Source: Lantana camara
Taxonomy: Eukaryota; Streptophyta; Magnoliopsida; Lamiales; Verbenaceae
DNA length: 64,000 bases
Direction of reading: 5' to 3'
Assembly (NCBI GenBank): GCA_037501455.1
Contig: CM074855.1
Location: 34,629,001 to 34,693,000, forward strand
Shown here: one piece after another, positions 7,602-49,585 of the stretch
Position numbering within the stretch: position 1 is the stretch's first letter
How the letters are laid out: every line of letters begins with the position of its first letter
The notes under the pieces: model-generated
The model's input: the letters and a program-made list of their open reading frames with translations, nothing else
Database searches by the model: none
Told to the model about the DNA's origin: nothing
Made by a program: the position numbers and the translations under genes

Positions 7602-8454
7602 TTTGCCCCCCCGCTCCTCGAGTACGAGGCGTGCGAGGTGCTCGTGGAGCGAGAATGTCGAGTCCTAAAATTTCAAAATTTCTAAGTGTTTTTCACGTCG
7701 TTCGTTACCGTATTATTCTGTATTTTAGGGTTTTGACTTTTCAAAGATTTTCAACTAGGGTTTTAGCTTTTAACCATATTACCGTAGTAATTCGAATTTC
7801 AATTTACCCCAGGCACTGTTCACGTTTCCAAGAGAGCTGTTCGAATTTCTGATGGCAGCCTAGCATGAGTCCAGCCTCCCAGTACTTGGCGATTCAGAGT
7901 CATTCATGAAGGCTTCGGTCATTCACAGCGGCGACGGTACGTCACTCACGGCGACATGAACGTTCAGTTCGCACGGCGAGGTGCTGGTCCTGAATTTGCA
8001 GTGATTTTGAGAGACTATACCTGGGACGACGCCAGAAAGCTCTTGAAAAACCTAGATCCAGACCAAACCTTGAGAGATCTGATACTTAGCCGTCGATTTC
8101 CGGCTTCTCGTTGTTGGCGAGCTTCCTCTTGCGGGGTATGTTTCTCGGACTTTTTCGGCGAGTTTCCATTCCACCCGGCGGGCTAATATTTAAAGTCGCT
8201 CAGATTTTTTTATTGTTTATTTTTCGGGCGTAAATCTTGGAATTTCAGGGGATTTTCTGGTAAAGCTCCGGGATTTCTCGAAAACATTAGGCATGAATAC
8301 CGTGATTCTGGAAATTTGCCTCGAGTCTTAGCGTGAGGTCTCTTATCTTCTGGTGTGCCTCAAGAGTTCCAACGAAGCTTGTTTCCTTGAAGGTTTAGTT
8401 TCGACAATTTCCAGATCTGCGACTTTCATCTCCCCTGATGTTGTTTCCAGATTT
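7602..8454. other. Tat 3' noncoding stretch, left of the copia insertion
   Basis: This lies between the Tat 3' LTR and the gene-capturing element. On the plus strand it would be upstream of the antisense accessory gene and may contain its promoter and leader, but no convincing TATA box, start or conserved frame can be named. It ends at the gattt target duplication (8450-8454). Confidence 0.5.
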
Positions 8455-8941
8455 TGTTATGAAGCTGCTTACCTTCTCACTAATTCACAGCAAATTCAGT
8501 TGAAGGCAGTAGAATTAAACTCACTTAAAAAGTGTGAAATTGTGCTGAAGAGATTTGAGGGAGAGATTAGAGGGAGAGAGCAGAGATTAGAGAGATTAGA
8601 GATGAGATTGAGAGAGATTAGAGACGAGGTTGAGAGAGAGAGAGAGAGAGAGATTCTGGAAAAGATTTTTATCATTCAAAGCTGCCTTACAAGGCCAACA
8701 CAGCGTACAATATATAGGTAAATGTCTCAGCCAAACATCCTACTACAAAGTCAAAATTACAATTTAAAATTCATGAAATCGTATAACAACTCTTAAGTAG
8801 AAATCTAATTCCTTCAGCTTCCCAAAACGATGCCGCATTGCTCTCAAAAGCCTTATCAGAAATACCCCAAAACTTGAAGAAACGCACTCTCCGATCTTGC
8901 ACTTCTTCTGAACGAGACTTATGACAGTTTTGCATATGATA
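8455..8941 (-). repeat. Gene-capturing element, 3' LTR
   Basis: It is 487 bp and matches 11599-12070. It contains a GA-rich tract (8565-8655) of GAGATTAGA and GAGAG repeats that differs in length between the LTRs. Its outer terminal base pair is altered (CATATGATA against CATATGACA in the other copy). The long frame of the element ends inside this LTR at 8764. Confidence 0.9.
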
Positions 8942-11541
8942 TTACTCCCTCCTAATTGAGAGTCTTGACCCCAAGACTCTAATTGAGCCTTCTCTTTGCC
9001 ATACGAAGCCCCAATTCTCCCCTCAGCAACAGTTTTGCATATGACATTTCTCCCACATTGAAAGATCTTTGTCCGAGCCTTGCGTTCTTTCATGAAACTT
9101 TTTATTTCATCCAATTCAAACTTCCTTCCAAAATAATCTCTTGGAACACCCTCACCAACAGAAATTTCTTGGAAACCGAGTCCCAGTATTTCATCAAATT
9201 TGGCCAGGGCAAAGGTAAGGCTTCCCTCTCGTGTAGCCTCAATAAACTCTTTATCTTTGACAGTAACATCACCAACTCCTACATTGTCTTGGCTAAAATA
9301 TCCAGAAATTGACCCAGACCCATAAGTACTTGAACAGGGCTTTCTAATCTTTGTATATGTAGAGGACTTGCTGGAGTTATATCTTGAATGGAAATAGCAA
9401 GCAAGAGAGAAGCAATGTTTCGACGATGGAATCCATAGATGGGAGCTGCAGGTATCAAATATGACTGTGAAATTCTGCGGGGTCGAACCAATAGAAATCT
9501 CTCCAAAGTATTGAACATCCATACAATTCTTCAAATAGACAAAATCTCCCTCAAAATCACCAACTTTTATCCTTTTATCTTTTAAACCCAGACTAGCTTT
9601 TCCAGTAGCTTTAATGGTGGAGAGGTCCAATGGCCTCCTTTTTAGACTAATTCTCCTCAACCCATCTGAAGATGGAACTAAAGAGCATACCAAAACCAAC
9701 AAACACAAAACGAACAACATGTTTCCAGCTTCCCCTATGATCTCAGCCATGACTTTAGAAGAAGCAGATGCATCCTCCATCATTATGCATGCAAGGAAAC
9801 ATACATTTGATAGATTACTTGATTGGCCTGTTGAAAGAAAATTGACAAGTGTATCAACTCCACCAGCTTTAATTGTTGTAGGCCAACATCCCTCAGTGCT
9901 GCTAGGAAGATTCCTTACAGCTCTTGCTGTTAGTAAGTCAACAACCACATTACCATCCTTAAGTCCATTCTCTAGTAGCTCCCATAAAACAGAGACAACA
10001 TCTTTTGTTGAAAAGATTTTTGAGCCAATATGATCCTTAGCCCCACCTTGAAAGACATCATATATCGTCTTTGCTGCAGCAAGTTGCCATTCAGGTGTTT
10101 TTGATTTAAGTAGACTAAGCAATGGGGGGCTGCAACCTCCAAGTAAAACTTTGACCCACAATTCATTCTCATTACAAAGACAACATAAAGCAATAGCAGC
10201 CCATATCTTTGTCTTGAGTGATCCAAACCGGAAAAGAGATAGGAGTATCAGAAGTACTTGAGAATGAGATCCAAAGGCATCACAAGCATTGATTTGTGTA
10301 TTAATAAGTTGAAGTAGTTGTCTCAAGGAAATCTCTTGTTCTTGCGGTGATGAGGAACTCTGCCTCAATTGCTCAATGCATTGGGCTACACTTTCCAATA
10401 TCCAATTTGATGTTCTGTTGAACAAAAGATTGAAAATAACAGCATCTCCTACTAAAACATATAGAAATGCAAATCTAATGTTCCATCCGACCTCTGTGGC
10501 ATAAATCCTAGTATCAATCAGCAGCATAAGAACCAAAGAACACCACGAAATAAACTCAATGCTCATAAGAACCATCTTATCTACTTTTTTGCACGAAAAT
10601 GATGCTTGATGTAATCTATGATAGAGCCTCAAACACATGATTTTATCCTTAACAGAGAATAACACCTTTATTTGAAGTCTAAGGGATGAATTGTTCCATT
10701 CCAAGTCGTTAACAGTTGTAATACCAAGTGAAGCACTACTAGTTGCCCATGATTCTCCCACCTTCAATTTTATAGGGGTATCATCCACATAGCATCCACC
10801 TGGATCAATCTTAAACGCATTGAATAAGTGAGTAAACGTACAACATGGAAGGCGCATTCGATCGATGAAGCAACAGTTGGTGTTGAAATCAGTTGTAGCA
10901 ACTCCCCTTTTTGGTCCACTTGCAATTTGATTATTTCCATCCGTTTCTACTTCCAGTATCCCTTTAATTTTTCTGTCGGGCATTTCATCGAACATCTGTC
11001 TGTCAATCCTTGTTTCAGCTTCCTTTACTATGAGTTTCCCATCCTTCAAACCACCAATGAGATTAGACCCAATCATTTGAGTATCTTCTGCACTTAGGTA
11101 ATTTCCATCCCTTAAGCTCTCATTCAATACATGAGTATCCAAGTCCACTACCATGTTCCTTCCAAGCCTATCTGCCTTGTGAAACGCACCACCTAACATC
11201 TTGCAATAAAAACCCATTACCCTTGATTCCTTCTCCTCGGACACATCCATATTATTTGGAGTCTTTTTCTCCTTTTCTACTTCCAACAAATCCTTAATTG
11301 CTCTTTTAGGAACTTTATCGAACACCTGAGTGTCGATACTTTTTGTAGTTTCCTTGACTATTAATTTCTCATCCTTCAAGCCCTTCATGGACACTGCTCC
11401 TTTCATTTCAGTTACTCTACTTACCGGAACTGGAGTTGGTAGTATACCTTCATCATAGTGTGGTCTGCTGGTGCGAGGAGAGATCTCACCCAGATTGCTT
11501 GTTCCCACGCTCTCCTTTCCCTTCAACAACCATTGAATCAA
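8764..11541 (-). CDS. Chimeric ORF of captured plant gene fragments (ABCC-like, CSI1-like, aspartic protease)
   Basis: The open frame has 925 codons. Its first codon is TTG; the first ATG is codon 46, so the start is uncertain. Codons 52-90 and 163-200 are two copies of a GLKDxKLIVKE..D(K/E)(V/M)P..LEVE unit of unknown origin. Codons about 325-373 resemble the first membrane domain of plant ABCC transporters ([20 protein letters not shown]). Codons 383-600 match the N-terminal armadillo region of cellulose synthase-interactive protein 1 ([40 protein letters not shown]). Codons 608-805 are the signal peptide, propeptide and N-lobe of a phytepsin-type aspartic protease ([20 protein letters not shown]). 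The catalytic DTG is DTC, and the second lobe is missing. The tail (about 860-925) comes from the LTR. The frame has no internal stop despite its composite origin. Expression is unproven. Confidence 0.8.
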
Positions 11542-11598
11542 GAAATCCAGCTTCTGATGTAAAGCTTTGTTGGACTCAACCTAAGCTCTGAGGCCATT

Positions 11599-12070
11599 TG
11601 TTATGAAGCTGCTTACCTTCTCACTAATTCACAGCAAATTCAGTTGAAGGCAGTAGAATTAAACTCACTTAAAAAGTGTGAAATTGTGCTGAAGAGATTT
11701 GAGGGAGAGAGCAGAGATTAGAGAGATTAGAGATGAGATTGAGAGAGATTAGAGACGAGGTTGAGAGAGAGAGAGAGAGAGATTCTGGAAAAGATTTTTA
11801 TCATTCAAAGCTGCCTTACAAGGCCAACACAGCGTACAATATATAGGTAAATGTATCAGCCAAACATCCTACTACAAAGTCAAAATTACAATTTAAAATT
11901 CATGAAAGCGTATAACAACTCTTAAGTAGAAATCTAATTCCTTCAGCTTCCCAAAACGATGCCGCATTGCTCTCAAAAGCGTTATCAGAAATGCCCCAAA
12001 ACTTGAAGAAACGCACTCTCCGATCTTGCACTTCTTCTGAACGAGAGTTATGACAGTTTTGCATATGACA
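11599..12070 (-). repeat. Gene-capturing element, 5' LTR
   Basis: It is 472 bp, next to the primer-binding variant at about 11574-11598. It lacks 13 bases of the GA-rich tract present in the other LTR. It is followed by gattt. Confidence 0.9.
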
Positions 12071-12989
12071 GATTTCAGTAGCTTCAGGGGTCTTGGGGCC
12101 TTGCAATTTCTGACGTGTTATGTTCGTCGTGTGCCTTATATCTTCAGGTGAATGGATGGTTAATCTCATTGTTGTAAGATTCCAGATATTCTATCTTTTT
12201 ATAATTACTCGAACTTCGCTGTAATGGATTTCGTGAGATTTTTCAATATCCATTGATATGCTGGGATTGAAAATGCCTAATTCCTCCTTAGTTGCTGTAA
12301 TGATTACCATCATTGTTGTTGAATAAATAATGTATTAGGCTAAAGTCTCTATTGAAAATTCATGCAGATTCCTGAGTGTTTGAGATTTTCCAAGACTTGC
12401 AATTTTTTTTTATTTTTGAATGAATGCTGTGGACCAGTGGTTGTGAAATGCTCAAATTTCCCCACTTATTTGTTGCAATCATTAATTAAGTAATGTTTGC
12501 TTCCTATGTTGCTCTTTGTAATGATTACAGCATAAGTGGGTGATTTGTTGAACTTTAAGATTTCCTTGAAGGAATTCATGTAGAATCTTTATTGGGTATT
12601 AGATATTTGTGGTGCAATAATGCAATTATGATGAAATGTCCCTAATTAAACCTTGTTTACCCGGTCACATATTTAATTGTTGAGGGGAAATAGTTGAGGC
12701 AGTCAGTTATACCTCGTTGAGCATGCTGTCTAAATTTGGGTCTTTACTCAGTTTGCAACCATTAAACCTTGGAAGTAGCTATGCCAGGCGGCCTGAATTT
12801 TGAGAGTTGAAGTTTCTCGGATTTGCTCGAGGAAGGAGGGGGTGCTGCTCGAATTTTCAATACTATTGAGGTAATTCCCAAGCTCTCTCCTTGAGTTATT
12901 TTCCTCGAATTGCTTGGATTGGATTTTATATGTCGAGATGCTTTCCCTACCATAATAGCTATTCGTCGGGTTGGAATAGCGGAGTTGAT
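12071..12989 (+). other. Upstream region of the Tat antisense gene
   Basis: AT-rich plus-strand sequence between the copia insertion and the first good ATG of the accessory gene (12990). Pyrimidine runs and GT/AG pairs could mark leader introns, but none can be fixed. A frame without stops reaches back to 12891 with no ATG until the MSRCF and MSDEW methionines. Confidence 0.4.
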
Positions 12990-15118
12990 ATGAGTGACGA
13001 GTGGGGTGCTCGGATTGAGGGGGCTGTTGAGGGCTCAAGTGTCGGTGTCGAGGCCGTCAGGGCTGAGGAGAACACCGTAGTGGAGACGACGAATGAGGTC
13101 ATGGGGACTGATTGTATTGTAGATAACAAGAAAGGGGTTTGCTTCAAACCATCCGAAATGTCGTCAAACATAAGTGATTCGGAGTTTAACGAGCTAAGGA
13201 GTTTGTTTCATATTCCAGATTTCTTTGAGATTATATGACCATTGCCTCACGAGAGGATTACTTCACCACCTGAGGGCACTATAGCGGCATATACCGATGC
13301 ATTTACTTGCGGTTTTCGACTCCCGATTGGGCCCGATGCGCTTGAGTTATATAAGGCGACGGGAGTTAGTCTGAGCCAATTAGCACCCAAACTGTATGTG
13401 ATAATCCATTGTTTCTTCGTGATCATGGCGTGCCTGGGAGAAGTACCCTCGGTGGTGAATTTTGCAAAACTTTATAGGACTCAGCGGTCTAGTCGATCGG
13501 CTGCCGATGTGGCAGATGCTAGATACCTTTGTATTACGCCTCAGAGTGATGCTCCTCGTTTAGATACTGATACTCTATATGACAGGACTTGGAAGAATCG
13601 ATTTGTATTTATTAGAAATACGAGGGGCGATTCATGGGGTGTACCCAAGAAGTGGGTTATTCCTGGAAAACGAGCTAAGAAAGCTCGAGCTGGATCGGTC
13701 GAAGATGAGTCAAGTGCGATCTCAAGTGACTCGATAAAGACATGGAAGTAATTGGGGTGTTTATCTGTCGTTAAACTGTTGGCTGAGCGAAATCTTTCTT
13801 GGGCCGGTATATCTCCCGTTTCGATTGGCTCGGAGCCGTTAGGTAGCTTTTATTATCTTACAGCTTCGACCCTTATCTCTTTTCTGTTGTTATACTCCAG
13901 CTTTTGAGTACGAAAATTCTAAGTATCTTGTTCGTGCTAATGTGTTCTTGTTTTGTGCTTTCCAGGCATCGATGACTTGATGAATGCCCAGGTGGAACTT
14001 GCGCTTGCTCAGGCGGTTGGAGGGAACAAGGTCGTTCGGCGTAAGCCCGGGAAAAGAAAGCGGGCCTCTTCGGATCAACAACATCCCAGCTCTGAATGCA
14101 CATTAGAGTCGATCCGAGAAGAACCTATGGAACTTGCCCCCCTTGTCGGTGATAAGGACGGACAATCTGATCCTCTCGTGCCTTCTTCAGCTGATCTTGT
14201 TGCTGAGGGGTCCCACACTACGCACCCTAGAGTGGATAATCTTGTGGAAGAGAGGTGCTTGAATCATCGTGCTAGGGACGTCGAAGTGATTGTCGCTTTA
14301 GATAATTTTCCGCCTTCTACGAGCATGCCGATAGCATTGGGCACCTCTACACCTTTGAGGGGTGGAGCTAGTAGAGGAGAGGCGCCTAACAATCAAGATT
14401 TGGTGGAAGCTTCTGATTTAGATAACGAGAATCAGCTGCCCGTTCATGACCAGCCCCGCGAGGTGCAAGGACTTTCCGATGCGATATTTAACTCGGAGCA
14501 ACTGGAGCATGATCTTCAGTGCTTGGGGCAAGTCGATTTTCAAGCCAACCAGCTAGCTATGAGAGAGGGTGTCACGGTAGTTTCCATATTTAGTCATTTT
14601 CGTCATTTCAATTTTTTATACTTATGCTGATATGGAGTAACATGCTGAACCCTTATACTTGGTGTATTTTCAGGATCTTATGCTGAGGATCGAGCACTCT
14701 TCTCGCTTAGCTTCTTGGTATAATAACATGAAAGTCATGTATAAACAGCTATATAAGCGAGCCAAGACCGATCTCGATGCACAAATTAAGGCTTCTGAGA
14801 GCCTTCGAGGCAGGTTCGAGAAGGCGAGGGAAACTATCCAGACACAAAAGAGTCAGTGTGCGAGGACCCAAGCGCTTCAAGACTAGGTGTTGGAGCTTAA
14901 GAAGGTGATCGAGGAGATGAAGGAGAAATCGACGAGCGACGATCGCCTAATGGTTTTATCCAAGGAAAGATTTGATGGGAGTGAGAGGGCACGCTTGGAA
15001 CTAAGAGTGAAGCTTGAGGAAAGCGAGAAAGAACGCATGGAGTTGAGCGCGAAGCTTGAGGAGCACGAGCTTGCCTCCGCTGCTCGAACTCGTTCGGATG
15101 TAGACGAGGGGGTGAAGC
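12990..15118 (+). pseudogene. Tat antisense accessory gene (putative gypsy-type transposase-like, Pfam Transposase_28 type), 5' part
   Basis: The gene lies on the strand opposite to gag-pol. The first coding block starts MSDEWGARIEG (12990) and runs to 13748 with one in-frame TGA at 13236-13238. After the stop it has PLPHERITSPPEGTIAAY and FRLPIGPDALELYKATGVSL, the signature I associate with the Putative gypsy type transposon family (PF04195). An apparent intron runs from about 13748 to TTTCCAG at 13965. A basic segment KVVRRKPGKRKRA follows, then acidic low-complexity sequence. A second apparent intron runs from about 14577 to TTTTCAG at 14672. The rest is a long coiled coil (ELKKVIEEMKEK) with an in-frame TAG at 14884-14886. 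The gene is cut by LARD-A after 15118 and resumes in frame at 25988. Its function is unknown; such genes are carried by many Tat elements. Confidence 0.75.
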
Positions 15119-27166: not shown

Positions 27167-28537
27167 TTACGCGTAGAACTTTTTCAAGTTGATCACGTTC
27201 CAAGGCCTAGGCAGGGGCTTATTCTTCGCGTCCGCCAAGCGATAAGCATTGTTGGCGAGCGCTTCGATCACCTTGTACGGACCCTCCCAGTTCGGCTGGA
27301 GCTTGCCGATGTGTTGGGAAACTTCAACTTTTCTAAGCACCAAGTCTCCAAGTTGGAAGTTTCGCGGATTGACGCCTTTGTTATAATGCTTGGCCATTGT
27401 TACCTGATAACGCTTCATGTTTTGCCAAGCTCTAATCCGCTTTTCCTCGAGACAGTCGAGTTCGAGCGCTCTGTTATCCTCATTGGTGAGGGGCATGAAG
27501 TATGCAACCCGAGTGGTCTCGTGGAGAATCTCAACTGGTAGAACCGCCTCAACACCGTAGACAAGCGAGAAGGGGCTCTCATTCGTGGCAGTTCGGGGAG
27601 ATGTTCGGTATGCCCAAAGAACACGAGGAAGCTCCTCGGCCCATTTGGTTCTTTTCCCGTCGAGGATGGTCTTTAAGTTCTTCAGGATGATTCGATTAGT
27701 CACTTCGGCCTGCCCATTTGATTGTGGATTGCCGACCGAGGAGAACCGTTGTTCAATTCCAAGCCTATAACACCAATCTACTGTTCGCTTGCTGATGAAC
27801 TGGAGCCCGTTGTCCGAGATGAGGACTCTGGGTACTCCAAAGCGACAAATGATGTTTTTCCATATGAATTCCTGAACAATGGAGTCAGTGATCTTTGCAA
27901 CGGGTTCAGCCTCGGCCCATTTCGTGAAGTATTCCACTGCTACAATTGCATGCAACTTTTGAACCTTTGCCAACGGGAACGGCCCAATGATATCTATTCC
28001 CCACTGATCGAAGGGCCACGAGATCACGTGACTCACCATTTTCGCAGCGGGTTGGTGGAGAACATTCCCGAACTTCTAACACTGAGGGCATTTGCGAGTG
28101 TAGTCAATAGCGTCAGCGAGCAGGGTTGGCCAAAAGAAACCCGCCTGGGCTATCCTTTTTGCGAGCGCTCGTGCCCCAGCATGATTCCCACAAGTACTTT
28201 CTTCTTGGCCAGAATGAATATGTTTGAGCACCTCCTCGGTTTGTGATGGATGAAGGCATATCTGGTCAGGCCCAAAGAATGACTTGCGAAATAATCTTCC
28301 ATCTTCATCCAAAGTGTACCGAGTGGAGCGGTACCTTATCTGTCGAGCCTGAGTTCGATCTGAGGGGAGCGTTCCATCCCTGAGAAAGATCACCAAAGGG
28401 TCGAGCCAACACAGCTCGGCTGGATCGAGGGAGAACACTTCTTCGCGACCCTCCAAGGCGATCACGGGATCCTTTGCGGTTAGGAAAGTGATTGCATGAT
28501 CCGAGGTGCCTTGCATACTATTCGCCAATTTGGACAA
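27167..28537 (-). pseudogene. pol: Tat pol: zinc-binding and integrase domains (interrupted)
   Basis: The C-terminal part of pol joins cDNA to host DNA. From 28537 the frame holds the last part of RNase H (KLANSMQG), then an HHCC-type zinc region (HIHSGQEES.CGNHAGARALAK..YTRKCPQC). A TAG stop lies at 28076-28078, where the family usually has a Gln. From 28039 comes the catalytic core with D16 (WGIDIIGPF), D76 (ISDNGLQF) and E112 (NGQAEVTNR), the D,D-35-E spacing. It then has the GKLQPNWEGPYKV segment and ends NLKKFYA, typical for Tat integrases. All stops lie in one frame with no frameshift. Confidence 0.93.
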
Positions 28538-29113
28538 GGCGTCCGCCCTTTGATTTTCTTCCCTCGGTATTTGTGAAAGGCTGAAAGCTTTGAACCGAGC
28601 ACGGAGTTCGTTGACCTTCTACAAATACTGGATCATGGTTTCTTCCTTCGCTTCATACGAGCCTTCCACTTAGCTTGCCATAAGTTGGGAATCAGTAAAT
28701 ACCGCCAAATGTTGTATTCCTCTTCGTATCGCCAAGTTGAGTCCGGCCAAGAGGGCCTCATATTCCGCCTCGTTGTTCGTGGCTCTCCATTCAAGTCTTA
28801 TAGCAAAGTCGAGCTCTTGACCATCCGAACTCCTTAGTGAGATCCCTGCTCCTCCTCCTCCGTTTGTCGAGGAGCCATCAACATGGAGGGTCCATGGGAG
28901 TGCAACCTCTGCTAGGATGATCTCGTTGGGAAGATCACTTCGCTCCAACAAGAAATTCTCTAACACTTGGGCTTGTTGCGCAACTCTTAGTTGATAGGCG
29001 ACCTCGAACTGCCCAAGTTCGATCGCCCACTTTACAAGTCTCCCCGAAACATCCGACTTGCTCAGCACTTGCCTCAATGGTTGATTCGTTAAAACAACTA
29101 TGGAGTGGGATTA
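28538..29113 (-). pseudogene. pol: Tat pol: second (archaeal-like) RNase H
   Basis: RNase H removes the RNA strand during reverse transcription. The acidic residues are visible in LHVDGSS, NNEAEYEALLAGL and FTDSQL. Stops occur at 29111-29113, 28670-28672 and 28619-28621, each readable as a CAA or CAG codon changed by one C-to-T transition. Having this domain after the reverse-transcriptase-linked RNase H supports placement in the Tat lineage. Confidence 0.88.
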
Positions 29114-31351
29114 GAAGTAGGGCTTCAGCTTCCTTGATGTATGCACAAGAGCCAGCGCGAACTTCTCAATCTCCAAATAGTTTAACTCTGGTCTGTGGAG
29201 CACTTTACTCAAGTAATATACCGGCAAATGTTTTCGCTCGCGCACGACCACCACTACCGAACTGATTGCTTCTGACGAAACCGTAAGATACACATACAAT
29301 ATTTCTCCTTTGTTGGGTTTTGCCAGAAGAGGAGCTGATGCGAGGTACGCCTTGAGATTAGCGAGGGCCTCATTGCACTCTTTCGTCCATTTGAACTGTT
29401 TCATGTTCCTTAGAATTTTGAAGAATGGAAGGCTCCGATCAGCCGAGCGTGATATAAACCTGTTAAGCGAAATGATTCGCCCGAGGAGCACTTGAACCTT
29501 TTTGATCGAATCTGGAGGTTGGATCGCTTGAATGGCTTCGATCTTATCCGGATTTTCCTCAATTCCACGCTGGCTAACTACATAGCCCAAGAACTTTCCT
29601 CCTTCAATGCCAAATGTGCACTTGCTCGCGTTGAGCTTCATTCCGTATTTTCTCAGAATTGAGAAGGTTCCTTTAAGATGTTCCAAGTGGTCGGATGCCT
29701 TAACACTTTTAGTGATCATGTCATCGACGTACACCTCCATAGTGTCACCGATCTCGGGAGCAAACATCCAGTTTACCAGCCTTTGATAAGTCGCGCCCGC
29801 ATTCTTGAGGCCGAACGACATAACTTTAAAGCAATATATTCCGTTCACAACTACGAAGGCTGTTTTCGCTCGATCCTCGGGAGCCATGAAAATCTGATAA
29901 TAACACTGGAACGCGTCCATCATACTCATGAGTTCGCACCCAGCTGTGGAGTCAACGAGCTGGTCTATCCGAGGAAGTGGATAGGGATCCTTAGGGCATG
30001 CTTTGTTCAGATCCGTAAAATCATTGCACATATGCCATTTGCCATTTGCCTTAGGAACGAGGACAACATTGCACAACCATTCTGGAAATTTGATAGGCTC
30101 AATGTAATCCGCATCAAGTAGTCTATTCACCTCCTCGTCGATATTCGCATTCCGTTCATTCCCTAACTTCCTTGCTTTTTGTCGGACGGGCTTCACAGAA
30201 GGATCGACGTTGAGTCGATGCACAATCACGTTTGGATCGATCCCTTTGAAGTCCGAGGGCTTCCAGGCGAATATGTTTGTATTTTCGCGTAGGAAATCAA
30301 TCAACATGACTTGTTCTTTTCCTTTGAGTTGAGCCCCAACCTTAGTTGTTTTCGAACTATCACGCGGGATGAGCTCGATCTCTTTGAAATCTCCGGTGGG
30401 CTTCAGCCTAGTTTCCTTGGGCTCAATTTGTCGAGCCTCTAACTTGCGCTTTTTCGGATGAGGAATCCCCTCCATATCGGGCATTTCATCTTCCTCTTCA
30501 TGAGCCGCTTCCAACGGTTTCGGAGTTTCATGAATCGGCTTAGGCTTCACAGTTGAGAGCATGTAGCACTCCCAAGCCTCTTTTAATTGACAATTTACTT
30601 CTCCAATTCCGTTGGGAGTTGGAAACTTCATCTTGCGGTGGAACGTTGAATGAATGGCTTTCAACTTCGCAAGAGCGGGTCTCCCAAGGATCACGTTATA
30701 TGGGAGGTTAACCTCGACCACCGTATAGATCAATGGGACCGTGGCTCTTCTTGGGGCGCAACCTAAGGAGCTCGCCAATCTTACTTGGCCAAGCGGGTAT
30801 AGCTCTGATCCGCCAAAGCCGAGGAGAGGGGTCTCTACGACATCCAGCGTGACATCATTTCCACAAAACTTTTTGAAGGTGGAGAGTGGTAAGACGTTCA
30901 CCGAGCTGCCACTATCTACCAATACCCTTTTGACTTGGGTGTTGTAGATGTCAACATTGATTACCATAGGACAATCTGGGCACTCACCATCCTCGTCGAC
31001 CATGACATTATCAAAATCTCGATCTGTAAAACCCAGGACCTCGCCTTTCTCAATATGGAAGACGTGTTGAGCAGGAGTGTTAGGCTCTTGCCTAAATCGG
31101 CGCCCTGCTTTCTTTCGCGAGGTCTTGGTATCACCATTTGTTGCCCCTCCGGAAATCATATTAACCACTCCACGAATGGGCATGTTATCATCAGGCGCTT
31201 GCTTAGTGCCTTTAGTCGCTCGTCGACCGCGCTGAGGGCTACGCGAGTGCGAACGAGACCTGCAAGGACTGCATGAACGAGAGCGTGCTCTGCCTCCTCG
31301 CCCTTTATGATGTCGATCCATGGACTTTAACAAATTCTGATAGTTTGCCAC
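29114..31351 (-). pseudogene. pol: Tat pol: protease, reverse transcriptase, first RNase H
   Basis: A 746-codon open frame. An Arg/Ser-rich start (RSRSCSPCRSRSHSRSPQ) is followed by a retropepsin with VLVDSGSSVNVLP (active DSG at residues 146-148) and VILGRPAL. Reverse transcriptase begins about residue 425. It has CNDFTDLNKACPKDPYPLP, the YVDD catalytic box at 541-544 and KCTFGIEGGKFLGY. A gypsy RNase H-like remnant follows (LPVYYLSKVLHRPELNYLEIEKFAL). The frame overlaps the 3' end of gag by 47 bases in a different phase. A stop at 29111-29113 cuts it from the rest of pol, so it is not functional as it stands. Confidence 0.93.
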
Positions 31352-33327
31352 CAGCTACCAAACGTTGGATCTCCTTCTCCAAGCTGATGCACTCATCTAT
31401 ATCGTGTCCATTCTGTTGGTGGAACGCACAATACTTGTTGGAATGGGAGTTTTTCTCATTTTGGGGCATCGGACGAGGCTTTCTGAAGATCTTTAAGCCG
31501 AAAATATTCAAGATCTCGGAGTTGCATTTGGTAAGTTCAACTCGTGGTCCCCCAGGGAGGGGTCCTGCTCGTCGTTCTCTGCGCTCCTCCCTATTTGAGC
31601 TTCTTGATTGTCTATCCTGGATATTTGAGCTTCTTGATAGTCTATCCTGGACACGCGCTCGTTTCATGCGAGCCATGTCTTCCTGCTCCATGTACTCGCT
31701 TGCTATCCTCCGGAGATGAATCATGTCCTTAGGTCTTTGATGAGCAATAGCATCTCCACATTCCGTACTGATCTTGGAGTTATTCAGCCCTTGGTAAACC
31801 GCTCGCTTCAAGAAATCGCCAGACGGACTTTTAACCTTGGTTAGTTCAGCACCAAAACGAGCAAAGAATGCCCTTAAAGTTTTATTGGGACCTTGCTCAA
31901 CATTCCAGAGGTATGTAGTAGGCAACTTGGTCTCCTTCAGAGGGCTAAAATGGCTATCGAATTGTTCGTACAAGTCATCAATGCTCCGAATCGAGCTCGG
32001 GGAAAGTCGCTTGAACTAATCATAGGCTGTTCCTGAGAGCGAAGTAACAAAGATTTTGCACCAGAAGTCCAATGAATGTTCATACAAATGCATGAGGTGC
32101 TTGAAGGCTGTTAAATGCTCATCGGGATCACTCGTACCATCATAGCGAGGAACGTTGGTGGGAACTTTAGAATTTCCTGCTTGCGCCATCAATATCTCCT
32201 CGCAAAGTGGTGAGGCTCGCTCAGCCCTCGATCTTCGAGGTCGTCTATTCTTCCGTCGAGGGGAGAGTTCAATGGGTCTCTCCCGATCGCCTTGTACTGG
32301 ACGACGTCGGGGCTTATCGACCACTTCCTCATCCCGACACCGATGATGAATGCTCATCGGGATCACTCGTACCATCATAGCGAGGAACGTTGGTGGGAAC
32401 CTTAGGATTTCCTGCTTGCGCCATCAATATCTCCTCGCAAAGTGGTGAGGCTCGCTCAGCCCTCGATCTTCGAGGTCGTCTATTCTTCCGACGAGGGGAG
32501 AGTTCGATGGGTCTCTCCCGATCGCCTTGTACTGGACGACATCGGGGCTTATCGACCACTTCTTCATCCCTACGCCGATGATGAACTTCCTTGTCTCGAC
32601 GTTGCGCATGTCGATGATGGACCTCTTCTTGGTCACCAACCTGAGACGCTTCCACGATCTTGCTCAGGGCAGCACGCAAGTTCTGGTTCTCCTCTTCTAA
32701 CTGAGTGAGACGGTCATTCTCTTTCTCCCCTACTCGAGTTTTTGAATGTTGAGCGGGATTGAGAGAATCCGGTTCCTCCTCGTCTTTCACCATAGTCTGT
32801 TTCCCATCACGTCGCACAAACGGGACTTGGTCATCACCGTCCGGAGGTGGGATAGGGTCTCTCACTCGGCTCGGTCCCACTACCATTGGATTTGGCCCGA
32901 TACGAACGGGCGGTTCCTCTTGTAGCAACCGGTTGGCCGTGCGCCCTGCTCCGTTCATCATGATGGTAGTGCAAGGTGGAGCAATGGTGGCCTGGACTCC
33001 TCCGATCTGGGGTTGCGTTCCACCCTGAAGCTCCCATACCGGGTTAAACAACAATTGGTTCAGTAGCAACGGGTTTATGCCTGCTGGAATGTTTAAGTTT
33101 TGGTTCATTCCAGTGCCGAGGGCTTGCAAGGAGTGGACGGGCAGACTGAAGTCCACGGTGGCTCCAGTTTGTTTTTTCTTATGCGGGAACGCAGGCGGCA
33201 AGCGGCGCAACACGTCAATGTTCGCCCGACTCATGTTGATGTTCGCCTGAGTTACTCGGGTTGGGGATAGTCGCGGCGGCAAACTAGAGCTGCGCTCGTC
33301 ACGACTTCTAGTTTCAGATCCTGTCAT
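31305..33327 (-). pseudogene. gag: Tat gag (frameshifted by a tandem duplication, one stop)
   Basis: Gag forms the particle that packages the element RNA. The first ATG after the primer-binding site is at 33325-33327 (MTGSETRSRDERSS). The N-terminal part runs open to a 235-bp tandem duplication (32115-32584) that shifts the frame. The continuing frame has PRYDGTSDPDEHLTAFKHLM and then TAG at 32016-32018, where related proteins have Trp before F.RL. After the stop come LPTTYLWNVEQGPNKTLRAF, an Arg-rich stretch and a single zinc knuckle CAFHQQNGHDIDEC, ending near 31305. Confidence 0.88.
32115..32584 (-). repeat. 235-bp tandem duplication inside Tat gag
   Basis: 32115-32349 and 32350-32584 are near-identical direct copies starting ATGCTCATCGGGATC and ending CCGATGATGAA. 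The unit is not a multiple of three, so it breaks the gag frame. A few substitutions separate the copies, so it arose after or late in the life of this insertion. Confidence 0.92.
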
Positions 33328-45304: not shown

Positions 45305-46768
45305 ATCACCCCTCCTTAAAGAGAATCTGTCCTCAGATTCTTCCGCTGTAACCGCAAATAACTCGGGGTGATGCTTCTGCATTTTCTCTTCTGTCTCCCA
45401 GGTTGCCTCTTCTGTCCCATGTCCTTTCCAAAGGACTTTAACCAAAGGAATCTTCCTAATCCTCAGCTCTTAAAACTTCTTATCAAGAATCTTGGCGGGC
45501 TTCAAAACATAAGTCAAATCCGGTTCCAACAGTATCTCCTCTACCGGAACAACCTCTGTCTCATCCGAGAAACACTTGCGAAGCTGAGATACATGAAATA
45601 CGTTGTGGATTCCTGTTAAACCTATAGGCAAATCCAATCTATAAGCAGTCGGTCCAACTCTTTCCAATATCTCATACGGTCCAACCTATCTCTGGTTTAA
45701 CTTTCCACCTTTCCCAATTCGGGAAAACCCTTTCCTTGGTGATGCCTTCAGAAATACCTTTTCGTCCACTGCGAATTCCAAATCCCTTCTTCGTCGATCA
45801 GCATAACTCTTCTGCCTGTCCTGGGCAGCTTTCATTCTCTGGCGAATGATCTGAATCTTTTCTGTCGCCTCTCTTATCCATTTAGCTGAATTCACTCTGA
45901 TCGGTCCTTCCTCAGTACATCTTGCTTCATCCAAATCCCAGTACAATGGGGATCTACATTTCCTTCCATACAAGGCTTCATATGGAGCAGCTTTAATAGA
46001 AGCTTGACAACTATTATTGTATGCAAACTCCACAAGAGGTAAACACTCTTTCCAACTTTCCTAGAAGTCCAAAGCACAAGCTCTTAGTATATCTTCCAAG
46101 TATTTATTCATCCTTTCTGATTGTCCATCCGTCTGAGGATGCGCTGCAGTACTGAAGTTCAACTTCGTTCCCATCAGAGTCTGAATCTCTTTCCACAATT
46201 GCGACGTGAATTTCGGATCTCTGTCCGACACTATACTGTTTGGAACTCCATGTAATCTGACAATCTCTTGCTGATACAGCTTTGCCAACGTGCTAATCTT
46301 ATCCGTCGTCTTTACTGGCAAAAAGTGTGCTGACTTTGTCAATCGATCAATGATCACCCAGATACTATCTTGTCCTCCTCTGACTTTGGGTAATCCGGTG
46401 ACAAAATCCATCGTGATTTGCGCCCACTTCCAAGTCGGAATCGGTAATGGTTGCAACTTCCCACTCGGCTTCTGGTGCTCAGCTTTAACTTTCTGACAAG
46501 TTAAGCACTTCTTGACATAGTTGGCTATGTCTCTCTTCATTCCATTCCACCAGAAATGCGTCTTAACATCTTGATACATCTTAGTACCTCCGGGATGTAT
46601 CGTGTACTTAGTCTTGTGCGCTTCGTCGAGAATCTCTTTCCTCAAAACAGTTGGCACGCATACTCGACCTTTGTACCTCAATATTCCATGTTCATCAACC
46701 TTGAACTTAGTCTCATCATCCTTTTCCTTAGATTCGAGACATTTCTTGATCCACTCGTCGTTCTTCTA
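45239..46768 (-). pseudogene. pol: Tekay pol: integrase and chromodomain (interrupted)
   Basis: From about 46681 there is an HHCC zinc region (H..HPGGTKMYQDVK, C59 LTC62). The core has D92 (ITMDFVTGL), D153 (VSDRDPKF) and E189 (DGQSERMN), the D,D-35-E pattern. The GPYEILERVGPTAYRL and HNVFHVSQLRK motifs follow. The chromodomain is IPLVKVLWKGHGTEEATWE, near 45400. Stops lie at 46766-46768, 46061-46063, 45686-45688 and 45470-45472, all in the same frame. The frame ends inside the 3' LTR at 45239. Chromodomains steer integration towards particular chromatin. Confidence 0.93.
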
Positions 46769-48529
46769 TGCTTCCAACACTTGCTCTTTCAATGGTGATA
46801 TCATCACAACGTTCGCAATTCGAGCTTTAGTTATCACCTCTATTCTTTCTCTTTGATCAACCTCTGGGTTGGCAGAAATCTGTGCCAAATGAACTTTCCT
46901 GCTTAGAGCATCGGCTACAACATTCGCCTTTCCTGGATGGTATTGAATAAGGCAATCGTAGTCCTCCAGAAATTCCATCCATCTCCTCTGTCGCATATTC
47001 AACTCCTTCTGAGTGAATAGATATCGCAGGCTCTTATGATCAGTAAAGATCTCAAACGTAACTCTATACAGGTAATGTCTCCACTTTCCCAGAGCAAAAA
47101 TTATCGCTGCTAACTCCAAATCATGAGTCGGGTAGTTGACTTCATGCGTTTTGAGTTTCCTTGATGCATACGCAATCACTTTTCCATTCTGCATCAAAAC
47201 TCCTCCTAGTCCTTCTTTCGAAGCATCGGTGTAAACAGTGTATCCTTCTTTTCCTTCTGGTAACGCTAACACGAGTGCAGTTGTTAGCATCTTTTTCAAT
47301 CTTTGAAAACTTTGCTCACACTTCTCAGTCCACTCGAATTTCCCTTCTTTCTTTGTCAACTTAGTGAGAGGTGTAGCTATCTTCGAGAAATCTTTGACAA
47401 ACCTTCGGTAGTAACTAGCTAATCCCAGAAAACTCCTCACTTCTGAAGGATTCTTTGGTGACTTCCAATCCATAATCGTTTCAATCTTCGAGGGATCTAC
47501 TTCGATTCCAGATCCTGATATGATGTGTCCGAGAAACGTAACTCTCTCAAGCCAGAACTCACATTTACTGAACTTTGCATATAGCTTGTGATCCAGCAAA
47601 GTGCGTAACACAATTCGAAGATGCTCAGCATGTTCCTCCGGTGTCTTTGAAAATACCAAGATATCGTCGATGAAGATCACTACAAACTTGTCGAGAAACG
47701 GCTTGAATATACGGTGCATCATATCCATGAATGCAGCTGGTGCGTTCGTCAAACCAAATGGCATTACCACAAACTCTTAATGTCCGTATCGGCTGTTGAA
47801 AGCAGTCTTCGGAATATCTGCTTCCCTGATCTTCAATTGATAATACCCTTGTCTTAGATCTAACTTGGAGTAGACCTTCGATCCTTGAAGTATATCGAAC
47901 AACTCTTCGATATGAGGGAGAGGATACTTATTCTTGATTGTCATCCTGTTCAGCTCCCGATAGTCAATGCATAAACGCAATGATCCATCCTTCTTCTTAA
48001 CGAAAAGCACAGGCGCTCCTCACGGCGATGTGCTCGGTCGAACATATCCAGACTCAATCAGTTCATCCAATTGCTTCCTCAGTTCTTCCAAGATGATCTC
48101 TTTCTTGTAACAATCCAACTTAGCTCGGTACTTAGACAACCAATCCATACCAAGTATAACGTCGTATCTTGTCATCGGTAATTTAATAAGATCCATCGGG
48201 TAACAACGGGTACCAATACATATAGGGCAGCGTTTATATACTTGATCCGTAACAAGGCAAGTTCCCAAAGGAGAACTCACTTCAAATTTATATGGCAAGT
48301 ATTCAAGTGGAAACTGTAAATGCGCACATAATTCAGAAGCAACAAATGAATGCGTAGCACCAGGGTCATACAAGACCTTAACTGGCGTGTTAAGAATGTG
48401 TACAATACCTTCCACAACAGACGAAGGATCAACCTCCTCCTTACCATCCAAAGCATAAGCTCTGCCTTTGAACACCGGTTTGTTCGTCGTACCCACCACT
48501 GCTTTTCCTTTATCCTGGACCCCAAATCT
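46769..48529 (-). pseudogene. pol: Tekay pol: protease, reverse transcriptase, RNase H (interrupted, internal deletion)
   Basis: Retropepsin has LYDPGATHSF (DPG in the active-site place) and VILGMDWLSKYRAKLDC. Directly after KKEIIL the frame jumps to EELRKQLDELIESGYVRPS. The roughly 100 residues normally lying between protease and reverse transcriptase are absent (junction near 48089) without a frame change. Reverse transcriptase has [34 protein letters not shown] and the FIDD catalytic box. RNase H has [15 protein letters not shown] and [14 protein letters not shown]. Stops lie at 48020-48022 (TGA where Trp is expected) and 47777-47779 (TAA, expected Tyr). Confidence 0.93.
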
Positions 48530-49585
48530 CCTGATCCTGTGCGGGCAACTATCTATCCGGTGCTCAGGGGAACCACACGCGAAACACTGTCCAGCTTTCT
48601 TGCGACAGTTCTCCTCAGTGTGTCCCGTTCGGCGACAATATCTGCAAACAATTTCCTTTGGACCTGGCTGAGGTGCTCTCTGCTGTTGTGGCGCCTTCTG
48701 ATACTGCTGTGGCGCTTTCTGCTTCTGTACTTGCTGTTTCGGTGGAGCGTTCTGTTGCTGACGTTGTGGTGTTACCATTGGCCTCTTTCCAGTTCCTTGG
48801 AGAAAAGATCCGGAAGGTCGCTTATTCCCTTGATAAGGCTTAGGGTTAGAAGGTCCTTGACGTGCAGTAGTTATCTTGATCTCCTTGTGTGCAGCTTCAA
48901 CCCTTAGCGCTCTATCAACAGCACGATTGTAGGTTTCTATGTCCAAAGAAGCAAGTGCCAATCGAAGTTCGGGCTTCAGTCCATCGATAAACCTTTTTGT
49001 CTTGCGACGCTCGTCAGTCAGAATATGAGGCGCATACTTGATCAGCCTCACAAACCTAGCTTCATACTCCATCACATTCATAGTTCCCTGAACCAAGCTC
49101 ATAAACTCAGCCTCCCGTGCATCCCGAGTCACTTGAGGCATGTACTTCTGCTGAAACTCTCTGATAAACTCATCCCAACTTCCTTCAACATTATTCTCAT
49201 TCCACATATGCTGAACGTGCTTCCACCAATTGTATGCAGCTCCTTCCATAAGAAAAGTAGCATACCGAACTCGTTCACGATCCTCTGGCTAGATCTCCAT
49301 AGCCTCGAAAATCTTCTCAAGACTGGTAATCCAATTCTCAGCCTTTATGTCGTTCGGTTCTCCATAGAACTTAGGTGGATTCATCCTCAGAAATTTTTCC
49401 AGTGACCTTTCATTAGGAGGATTATCTCTCGGTGCACAAGCCCTCATAAATTGTCGTAGCACATCCCTTAATTCCGGAGTTCTTTCCCGTTCAGGGGGTG
49501 GAGTGACATCTCTTTGGGGCGGCGTGACATCTCTTTGGGGTGGCAGTGGTGGTACACGATTCCGGGGTGCTCTTCTCGGTGGCAT
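48530..49585 (-). pseudogene. gag: Tekay gag (one stop)
   Basis: It starts MPPRRAPRNR at 49583-49585, has a Pro/Arg-rich N-terminus with a short PPQRDVT duplication, then the capsid region (RMNPPKFYGEPNDIKAENW; EGAAYNWWKHVQ; FQQKYMPQVTRDAREAEFM). A Gln/Pro-rich linker precedes two zinc knuckles, CRYCRRTGHTEENC and CFACGSPEHRIDSC. One TAG lies at 49289-49291. Gag and pol share one frame, as is usual for Tekay. The gag/protease boundary is approximate. Confidence 0.93.

What the first reader, a model, noticed from the sequence alone, without database searches (positions are those of the whole stretch)
8455..12070. Retrotransposon that has fused pieces of three plant genes into one open frame
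LTRs, a primer-site variant, a polypurine tract and the gattt duplication show an LTR retrotransposon. Its only frame joins an ABCC-transporter-like membrane segment, the start of a CSI1-type armadillo protein and the N-lobe of a phytepsin-type aspartic protease, ending in the LTR. Precedent: maize Bs1 carries parts of cellular genes. The 925-codon frame is open across introns that the donor genes would have had, as expected if spliced RNAs were captured during reverse transcription. This particular combination is not one I know.
Basis: partly seen in the sequence, partly recalled or inferred. Interest (0 to 1): 0.9.

Follow-up and report, generated by a model that had tools for sequence, protein, structure and literature searches.

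The report
Gene-collecting plant retrotransposon family
A mobile element in a flowering plant carries pieces of three ordinary plant genes joined into one very long reading frame, and related elements in the same genome carry other collections of host gene pieces, so it is a natural record of new gene combinations being made.

Summary
The element is real: 8455-12070, minus strand, two TG..CA LTRs, GATTT duplication, variant PBS, purine tract. Its 938-codon frame joins a gag start, an unidentified module, pieces of ABCC-, CSI1- and phytepsin-type genes and a tail. All three donor loci were found in the same genome on separate contigs (C2, C3, C8). The protease donor has three GT-AG introns that are exactly absent from the element, so spliced RNA was captured; the CSI1 and ABCC pieces each match one uninterrupted donor stretch and say nothing about introns.

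The larger finding is outside the window. The same chimera sits at two more sites, one with a 952-codon frame. Related elements share the shell but carry other cargo (enolase, Sec23/24, exportin, Ca2+-ATPases, flippase, antiporter, PRMT, VHS). The module was matched at 72 loci; 26 of 73 matches lie in frames of 600 codons or more. In most copies read the start codon overlaps the PBS; the window copy has lost the frame to it. Ty3/gypsy gag-pol relatives are the likely helpers. Capture by reverse-transcriptase template switching is inferred. Frames stay open although CSI1 cargo drifts neutrally. Known kind (maize Bs1), new variant at family scale.

The parts
8450..8454 (.). target-site duplication GATTT, left copy
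   Evidence: read; equals 12071-12075
8455..8941 (-). 3' LTR (487 bp)
   Evidence: K to the 5' LTR 0.0103
8942..8955 (-). polypurine tract beside the 3' LTR (position read by eye)
8942..9141 (-). tail of the internal region, possibly the remnant of the end of pol
   Evidence: C9-copy tail against the pol-end of L039: 42% over 33 residues, E 0.005 only
8764..11580 (-). 938-codon stop-free frame plus stop; ends inside the 3' LTR; first in-frame ATG at 11404-11406
9142..9738 (-). captured phytepsin-type protease N-lobe with about 18 bases from upstream of the donor's ATG; catalytic DTG changed to DTC; three donor introns missing
   Evidence: donor G000:C8:11121566-11122426 in four blocks; motif count
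9744..10409 (-). captured CSI1 armadillo piece, within one uninterrupted donor stretch
   Evidence: donor C3:14547364-14548029, 86% (85.5%)
10420..10577 (-). captured ABCC-type transmembrane piece
   Evidence: donor C2:3840418-3840575, 84%; PDB ABCC2
10579..11382 (-). N-module of unknown origin shared across the family; holds an imperfect 110-codon-spaced repeat (10926-11052, 11256-11382)
11383..11580 (-). gag N-terminal part of the frame
   Evidence: 45/73 identical between the C9 copy and gag of relative L063, carried over to the window copy by alignment
11585..11596 (-). primer-binding site variant TGGCCTCAGAGC; overlapped by an ATG (11595-11597) that opens only 19 codons in this copy
   Evidence: the 18-base signature occurs 18 times in the genome, 0 for the reversed control
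11599..12070 (-). 5' LTR (472 bp)
12071..12075 (.). target-site duplication GATTT, right copy

Best explanation
It is a non-autonomous LTR retrotransposon derived from a Ty3/gypsy lineage. The shell (LTRs, PBS, gag start, tail, purine tract) is retained; the rest of gag-pol has been replaced by pieces of host mRNAs. Shown: LTR-bounded copies with target-site duplications, spliced donor sequence, donors on other contigs, several copies of the same chimera, sister elements with the same shell and different cargo, and relatives with gag-pol. Inferred: the element RNA is packaged with a helper's reverse transcriptase; the enzyme switches between the element RNA and co-packaged spliced host mRNAs, stepwise and at short matches, so that cargo is gained and replaced over rounds. 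Also inferred (about 0.65): translation of the long frame, from a start codon that overlaps the PBS, helps the element RNA to persist, so frames are kept open although much of the cargo's protein sequence is not conserved. The gag start and N-module are the best candidates for a conserved function. The window copy itself has lost the frame to the PBS start codon.
For: Structure: (six of nine LTR-bounded elements have an exact 5-bp duplication by eye, one 4 of 5). Donors: AP C8, CSI1 C3, ABCC C2; introns of 91, 108, 84 bp missing. Copies: C9 with 952 open codons, C11. Other cargo. Shared CSI1-AP junction at four further loci. Family size: 111 matches, 73 with the N-module at 72 loci, 26 of 73 in frames of at least 600 codons and 13 of at least 1000. 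Helper candidates: 9 of 38 gag-start matches in frames of 1157 to 1561 codons; one, read in two pieces, has PBS TGGTATCAGAGC, the same gag start and a reverse transcriptase. Junction: N-module and ABCC exon share ATGGTT. Open frame: about 5 stops expected in 938 codons at K 0.05, P(0) 0.005, and the window-L061 divergence is K 0.121, so about 0.06 per lineage. N-module dN/dS 0.42-0.55 with p 0.0023 to 0.025 in 4 of 12 comparisons.
Against: No transcript, protein or mobilisation was observed. dN/dS among the three chimera copies (0.52-0.83) does not differ from 1; CSI1 cargo 0.67-1.18, none significant; 8 of the 12 comparisons were not significant and two exceeded 1. The counting method ignores transition bias, which lowers dN/dS, and the tests are not independent. 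Several copies are broken: C11 (368-bp insertion, stop), L040 (PBS frame 27 codons), L059, window copy. Microhomology at the CSI1-AP junction is at most about 2-3 bases. The tail's pol origin is weak (E 0.005). The assignment of a helper rests on similarity only. Frames of unread loci were not shown to hold host cargo.
Confidence: 0.82

Rival explanations
1. The cargo is inert passenger DNA; frames are long only because capture is recent and because long frames drew attention.
For: LTR divergences of nine elements are small, K 0.0021-0.0189. CSI1 cargo evolves neutrally. The window was chosen for its long frame, and broken copies exist.
Against: Cargo is older than the insertions: window to CSI1 donor K 0.152, to protease donor 0.116, to L061 0.121. 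Zero stops over 938 codons has P about 0.005 at K 0.05. Frames of 600 codons or more are found at 26 of 73 module matches that were not chosen for it.
Confidence: 0.3
2. Capture at the DNA or read-through transcript level from sequence next to an insertion (3' transduction), not template switching.
For: Reported for other plant elements (PMC13317346, section 5 read). A neighbour's transcript would also be spliced.
Against: Three donors on three contigs; cargo is internal, between gag start and 3' LTR; sister elements have different cargo at the same position.
Confidence: 0.12
3. The chimera is a domesticated host gene that resembles an element.
For: Long open frame; protease cargo dN/dS 0.40-0.61 between elements, p 0.037-0.10.
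Against: Three copies with different target-site duplications, LTRs 1% or less apart, two of three copies damaged.
Confidence: 0.04
4. An ordinary host locus or an assembly join.
For: None found.
Against: Same joins at several loci with different flanks; donors separate and, for the protease, with introns.
Confidence: 0.01

Closest known systems
[quoted passage not shown]
   Same: LTR retroelement with segments of three host genes in a chimeric frame (review PMC13317346, section 5 read; the original papers were not read, PMC2899935 is not held).
   Different: Here a family with many different cargo sets, a shared gag start and N-module, and a start codon overlapping the PBS. Whether Bs1 has comparable sister elements was not checked.
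LTR-captured genes surveyed in rice and sorghum (PMC3726574, passages seen)
   Same: Host genes inside LTR elements, many not under purifying selection.
   Different: The passages seen speak of captured genes one by one; multi-gene in-frame collages were not in them.
Replication-defective, gene-transducing retroviruses with gag-host gene fusions (recalled)
   Same: gag start fused in frame to spliced host sequence, pol lost, helper needed.
   Different: Intracellular plant element, several host genes in series, no envelope.
Pack-MULEs and Helitrons (recalled; named in PMC13317346)
   Same: Serial gathering of host gene fragments by a family.
   Different: DNA elements that usually copy genomic DNA with introns; here LTRs and spliced pieces.

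Membership tests
LTR retrotransposon | two LTRs ending TG..CA | tested here: met
   the 3' LTR's outer end on the internal side reads TA by one change
LTR retrotransposon | short target-site duplication, different at different sites | tested here: met
   GATTT, GTTTC, GGACC; others
LTR retrotransposon | PBS complementary to a tRNA 3' end | tested here: inconclusive
   10 of 12 bases of the initiator-Met type (tRNA sequence recalled); relative L063 has the full 12
LTR retrotransposon | gag-pol with reverse transcriptase in the element | tested here: not met
   Pfam finds none in the frame: non-autonomous
Ty3/gypsy-derived | sequence kinship with a Ty3/gypsy gag or pol | tested here: met
   gag start 45/73; L039 carries a gag start (E 6e-14) and integrase end (63%, E 4e-50) of relative L054 and is related to the C9 copy (E 2e-21)
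Ty3/gypsy-derived | chromodomain (chromovirus) | not tested
   no chromodomain search reported one; chromovirus kinship is only recalled resemblance
Bs1-type gene-transducing LTR element | pieces of several host genes inside an LTR element | tested here: met
   three donors located
Bs1-type gene-transducing LTR element | transcribed and translated chimeric product | not testable with these tools
   no RNA or protein data
TRIM / LARD | no coding capacity | tested here: not met
   938-codon frame; 951 codons from the PBS ATG in L032
active pepsin-type protease | two lobes with catalytic DTG/DSG | tested here: not met
   one lobe only and DTC; 98 of 98 database proteins with a readable motif have DTG

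The most novel reading that the evidence does not exclude
A lineage of defective plant retrotransposons works as a continuing exon-shuffling device: a start codon built into the PBS and a gag-derived start drive translation of whatever spliced host mRNA pieces have been spliced in by template switching, and propagation selects for an open frame rather than for a particular protein. It would keep producing roughly thousand-codon, multi-gene fusion proteins in one genome.
Probability: 0.4. Interest if true: 0.92.

Novelty: new variant of a known kind. Interest (0 to 1): 0.78.

Why it matters
How new multi-domain genes arise is usually inferred from old remnants. Here one genome holds many young elements (LTR K 0.002-0.019 in nine) that share a shell and differ in spliced host cargo, with donors still present, so capture order, junctions and fate of each chimera can be followed. 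The open-frame-without-sequence-conservation pattern and the PBS-overlapping start codon give directly testable ideas on why such frames persist. The family would also mislead gene annotation, since its frames look like large multi-domain genes.

Tried and rejected
Protein searches with the N-terminal third found nothing: residues 1-383 as a region (4754 candidates of 509-1619 aa, none at E <= 10) and as a separate query (2426 candidates, none). A PPR origin of the N-module was suggested by eye and not supported by Pfam (best CLASP_N, E 0.11). A ubiquitin-L40 match (E 1.7) was dropped: the same stretch occurs in L038 without further L40 similarity. An earlier thought that a 3-base insertion in the CSI1 piece marks a splice junction was dropped because the donor stretch is uninterrupted. 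A first dN/dS for CSI1 ran beyond the homologous part and was replaced, whose window-L061 row still includes a badly aligned left end. Viral contigs held no exact copy of a 23-base LTR end. No tRNA and no Rfam family in the window. Literature: searches found no paper on this combination (0 papers with all five terms); that is a statement about this open-licence library and those terms only.

Full report
OBSERVATION. The element occupies 8455-12070 on the minus strand. Its LTRs (8455-8941, 11599-12070) align with 5 mismatches and 15 gap columns, K 0.0103; the GATTT duplication flanks it. The PBS-like TGGCCTCAGAGC lies at 11585-11596 and a purine tract beside the 3' LTR. The frame is open for 938 codons (11580-8764); shuffles of the same sequence reached at most 192 in 500 trials.

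SEGMENTS. A database search with the whole frame returned 115 proteins at E <= 0.001, all scored from a capped set of 7986 candidates; those I looked at matched either the CSI1 or the protease part, and I saw none that joins them. The best named relatives are from Lamiales (Sesamum, Orobanche, Erythranthe). In small trees of 24 proteases and 13 CSI1 proteins (selected from the 115) the element falls near the Lamiales sequences with modest support. The ABCC piece matches plant ABCC2 (E 1.3e-7). The protease piece is the N-lobe only, with DTC for DTG.

DONORS. A search of the window's own genome (1.27 Gb, 378 contigs, unnamed) with the internal region gave 64 matches, 40 of 137 candidates being scored. 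The protease donor on C8 matches in four blocks; the gaps are introns of 91, 108 and 84 bp with GT..AG ends, and the captured piece begins about 18 bases upstream of the donor's ATG. The CSI1 donor on C3 is 86% identical over 666 uninterrupted bases, a paralogue on C4 76%. The ABCC donor on C2 is 84% identical over 158 bases, starting at an acceptor-like AG. In L038, which has the module but no ABCC, the module reads AAGATGGTTAAG where the window copy changes to ABCC; the ABCC exon begins ATGGTT.

SAME CHIMERA ELSEWHERE. The LTR search gave 43 matches. The copy on C9 (L032, duplication GTTTC) has a 952-codon frame. The copy on C11 (L031, duplication GGACC) holds a 368-base insertion, which includes an 8-base repeat of its flank and has the ends TAGGGATGTAAAC, hAT-like from memory, and a stop in the protease part. 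Both keep 25 bases behind the PBS that the window copy lacks. dN/dS between the three copies is 0.66, 0.83 and 0.52, none different from 1.

THE FAMILY. Fourteen elements that I read carry host cargo: the window copy, L031, L032, L037-L042, L044 and L058-L061. Beyond ABCC, CSI1 and protease, tests gave: L041 enolase (PF00113 2.5e-49) and Sec23/24 (2.5e-9), with kinesin below its cut-off; L039 exportin (PF08389 2.5e-12), phosphoglucomutase (3.2e-8) and an integrase-end domain (5.8e-14); L037 Na+/H+ exchanger (1.5e-22), VHS (5.5e-17), PRMT (PDB, 3.5e-7) and, in a second frame, GAT (7.9e-10); L038 PRMT_C (4.1e-22); L042 an ACA-type Ca2+-ATPase (2.1e-68), a SERCA-type one (2.8e-22), a MurE-like protein (4.8e-15), a flippase (3.9e-12) and a subtilase propeptide (2.8e-6); L058 protease and DUF7798 (1.1e-28); L059 PMR5N (5.5e-8; L060 below cut-off). 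L040 and L044 were taken as copies of L037 and L038 (96.6% and 99.1% protein identity). Names such as exportin-T, receptor kinase or carotenoid isomerase were given by eye only. L034, L035, L051 and L052 show the module without identified cargo. L058 to L061 have the same CSI1-to-protease join as the window copy, so this join is older than the window's subfamily.

SIZE. The first 228 residues of the C9 frame found 111 matches (150 of 174 candidates scored). By query range, 38 cover only the gag start and 73 include the N-module, at 72 loci. Of the 73, 26 lie in frames of at least 600 codons, 17 of at least 900, 13 of at least 1000; three of the 26 have one stop inside the match. I read cargo at a small part of these loci; the rest are counted by frame length only.

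SHELL AND HELPERS. Nine of the 38 gag-start matches lie in frames of 1157 to 1561 codons. Two short pieces of one (C4) show PBS TGGTATCAGAGC, the same leader and gag start (45 of 73 identical to the C9 copy, ending where gag's conserved part begins) and a Ty3/gypsy-type reverse transcriptase and RNase H. L054, another relative with gag and pol in several frames, links to the family through L039. In 15 of 25 sources scanned the PBS is TGGCC-type and overlapped by an ATG; L039 lacks the ATG, L063 has neither, L046 has the ATG with the ordinary PBS, and seven had no match. That ATG opens 951 codons in L032, 982 in L042, 682 in L037 and at least 730 in L060, but 19 in the window copy and 27 in L040. 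The 18-base signature occurs 18 times in the genome (reversed control 0), each 2 to 668 bases from the start of an N-module match.

SELECTION. Random change at K 0.05 would give about 5 stops in the window frame, P(none) 0.005; the path from window copy to L061 is K 0.121. An earlier estimate from protein divergence gave P(none) 0.003 to 0.01 for CSI1 plus protease pieces. Protein sequence itself is weakly conserved: within elements CSI1 0.67-1.18, protease 0.32-0.61 with p 0.037 to 0.10; N-module 0.42-0.55 in the four of 12 comparisons with p below 0.05, the others not significant, two above 1. The simple counting method, dependence between pairs and the fact that the window was picked for its frame all weaken these tests. 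My reading is that an open frame has been kept more strictly than its content; this is inferred, not shown.

MECHANISM AND NOVELTY. Spliced cargo, donors on different contigs, position between gag start and 3' LTR, and changing cargo in a constant shell fit reverse-transcriptase template switching during replication by a helper. Maize Bs1 is the known precedent (section 5 of PMC13317346 read), so the kind is known; the family with changing multi-gene, in-frame cargo and the PBS-overlapping start codon is what I have not seen described in the searches made.

Noticed in passing
G000:C7:87900552-87915596 (L043, L044): Seven LTR matches spaced exactly 2342 bases apart, with an eighth 3183 bases further on: an element amplified as a tandem array.
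   Followed up: partly
G000:C9:24763266-24902809 (L034, L035, L051, L052): Four similar truncated family members; three of them lie about 25 kb apart, as in a segmental array.
   Followed up: partly
window 9029-9054: A 26-base copy of the purine-tract/LTR-start junction lies inside the tail, 105 bases from the real one.
   Followed up: no
L031 inside the CSI1 piece: A 368-base insertion counting an 8-base flank repeat (GTTGCAGC), ends TAGGGATGTAAAC..: a probable hAT-type MITE.
   Followed up: partly
window 27167-31973 and 46061-49249: Two further Ty3/gypsy-type elements with gag, reverse transcriptase and integrase domains, in pieces.
   Followed up: partly
window 13242-13751: Weak Transposase_28 (putative gypsy-type) match, E 7.3e-5, below its cut-off, just beyond the element.
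   Followed up: no
L041: Internal region about 92% like the window element but LTRs only about 75%: a sign of recombination between subfamilies.
   Followed up: no
CSI1 proteins P0005-P0008: Unspliced predictions from four contig sets all stop soon after the same point (Y-T/S-Q-V), so a first long CSI1 exon of about 1000 codons is likely.
   Followed up: partly
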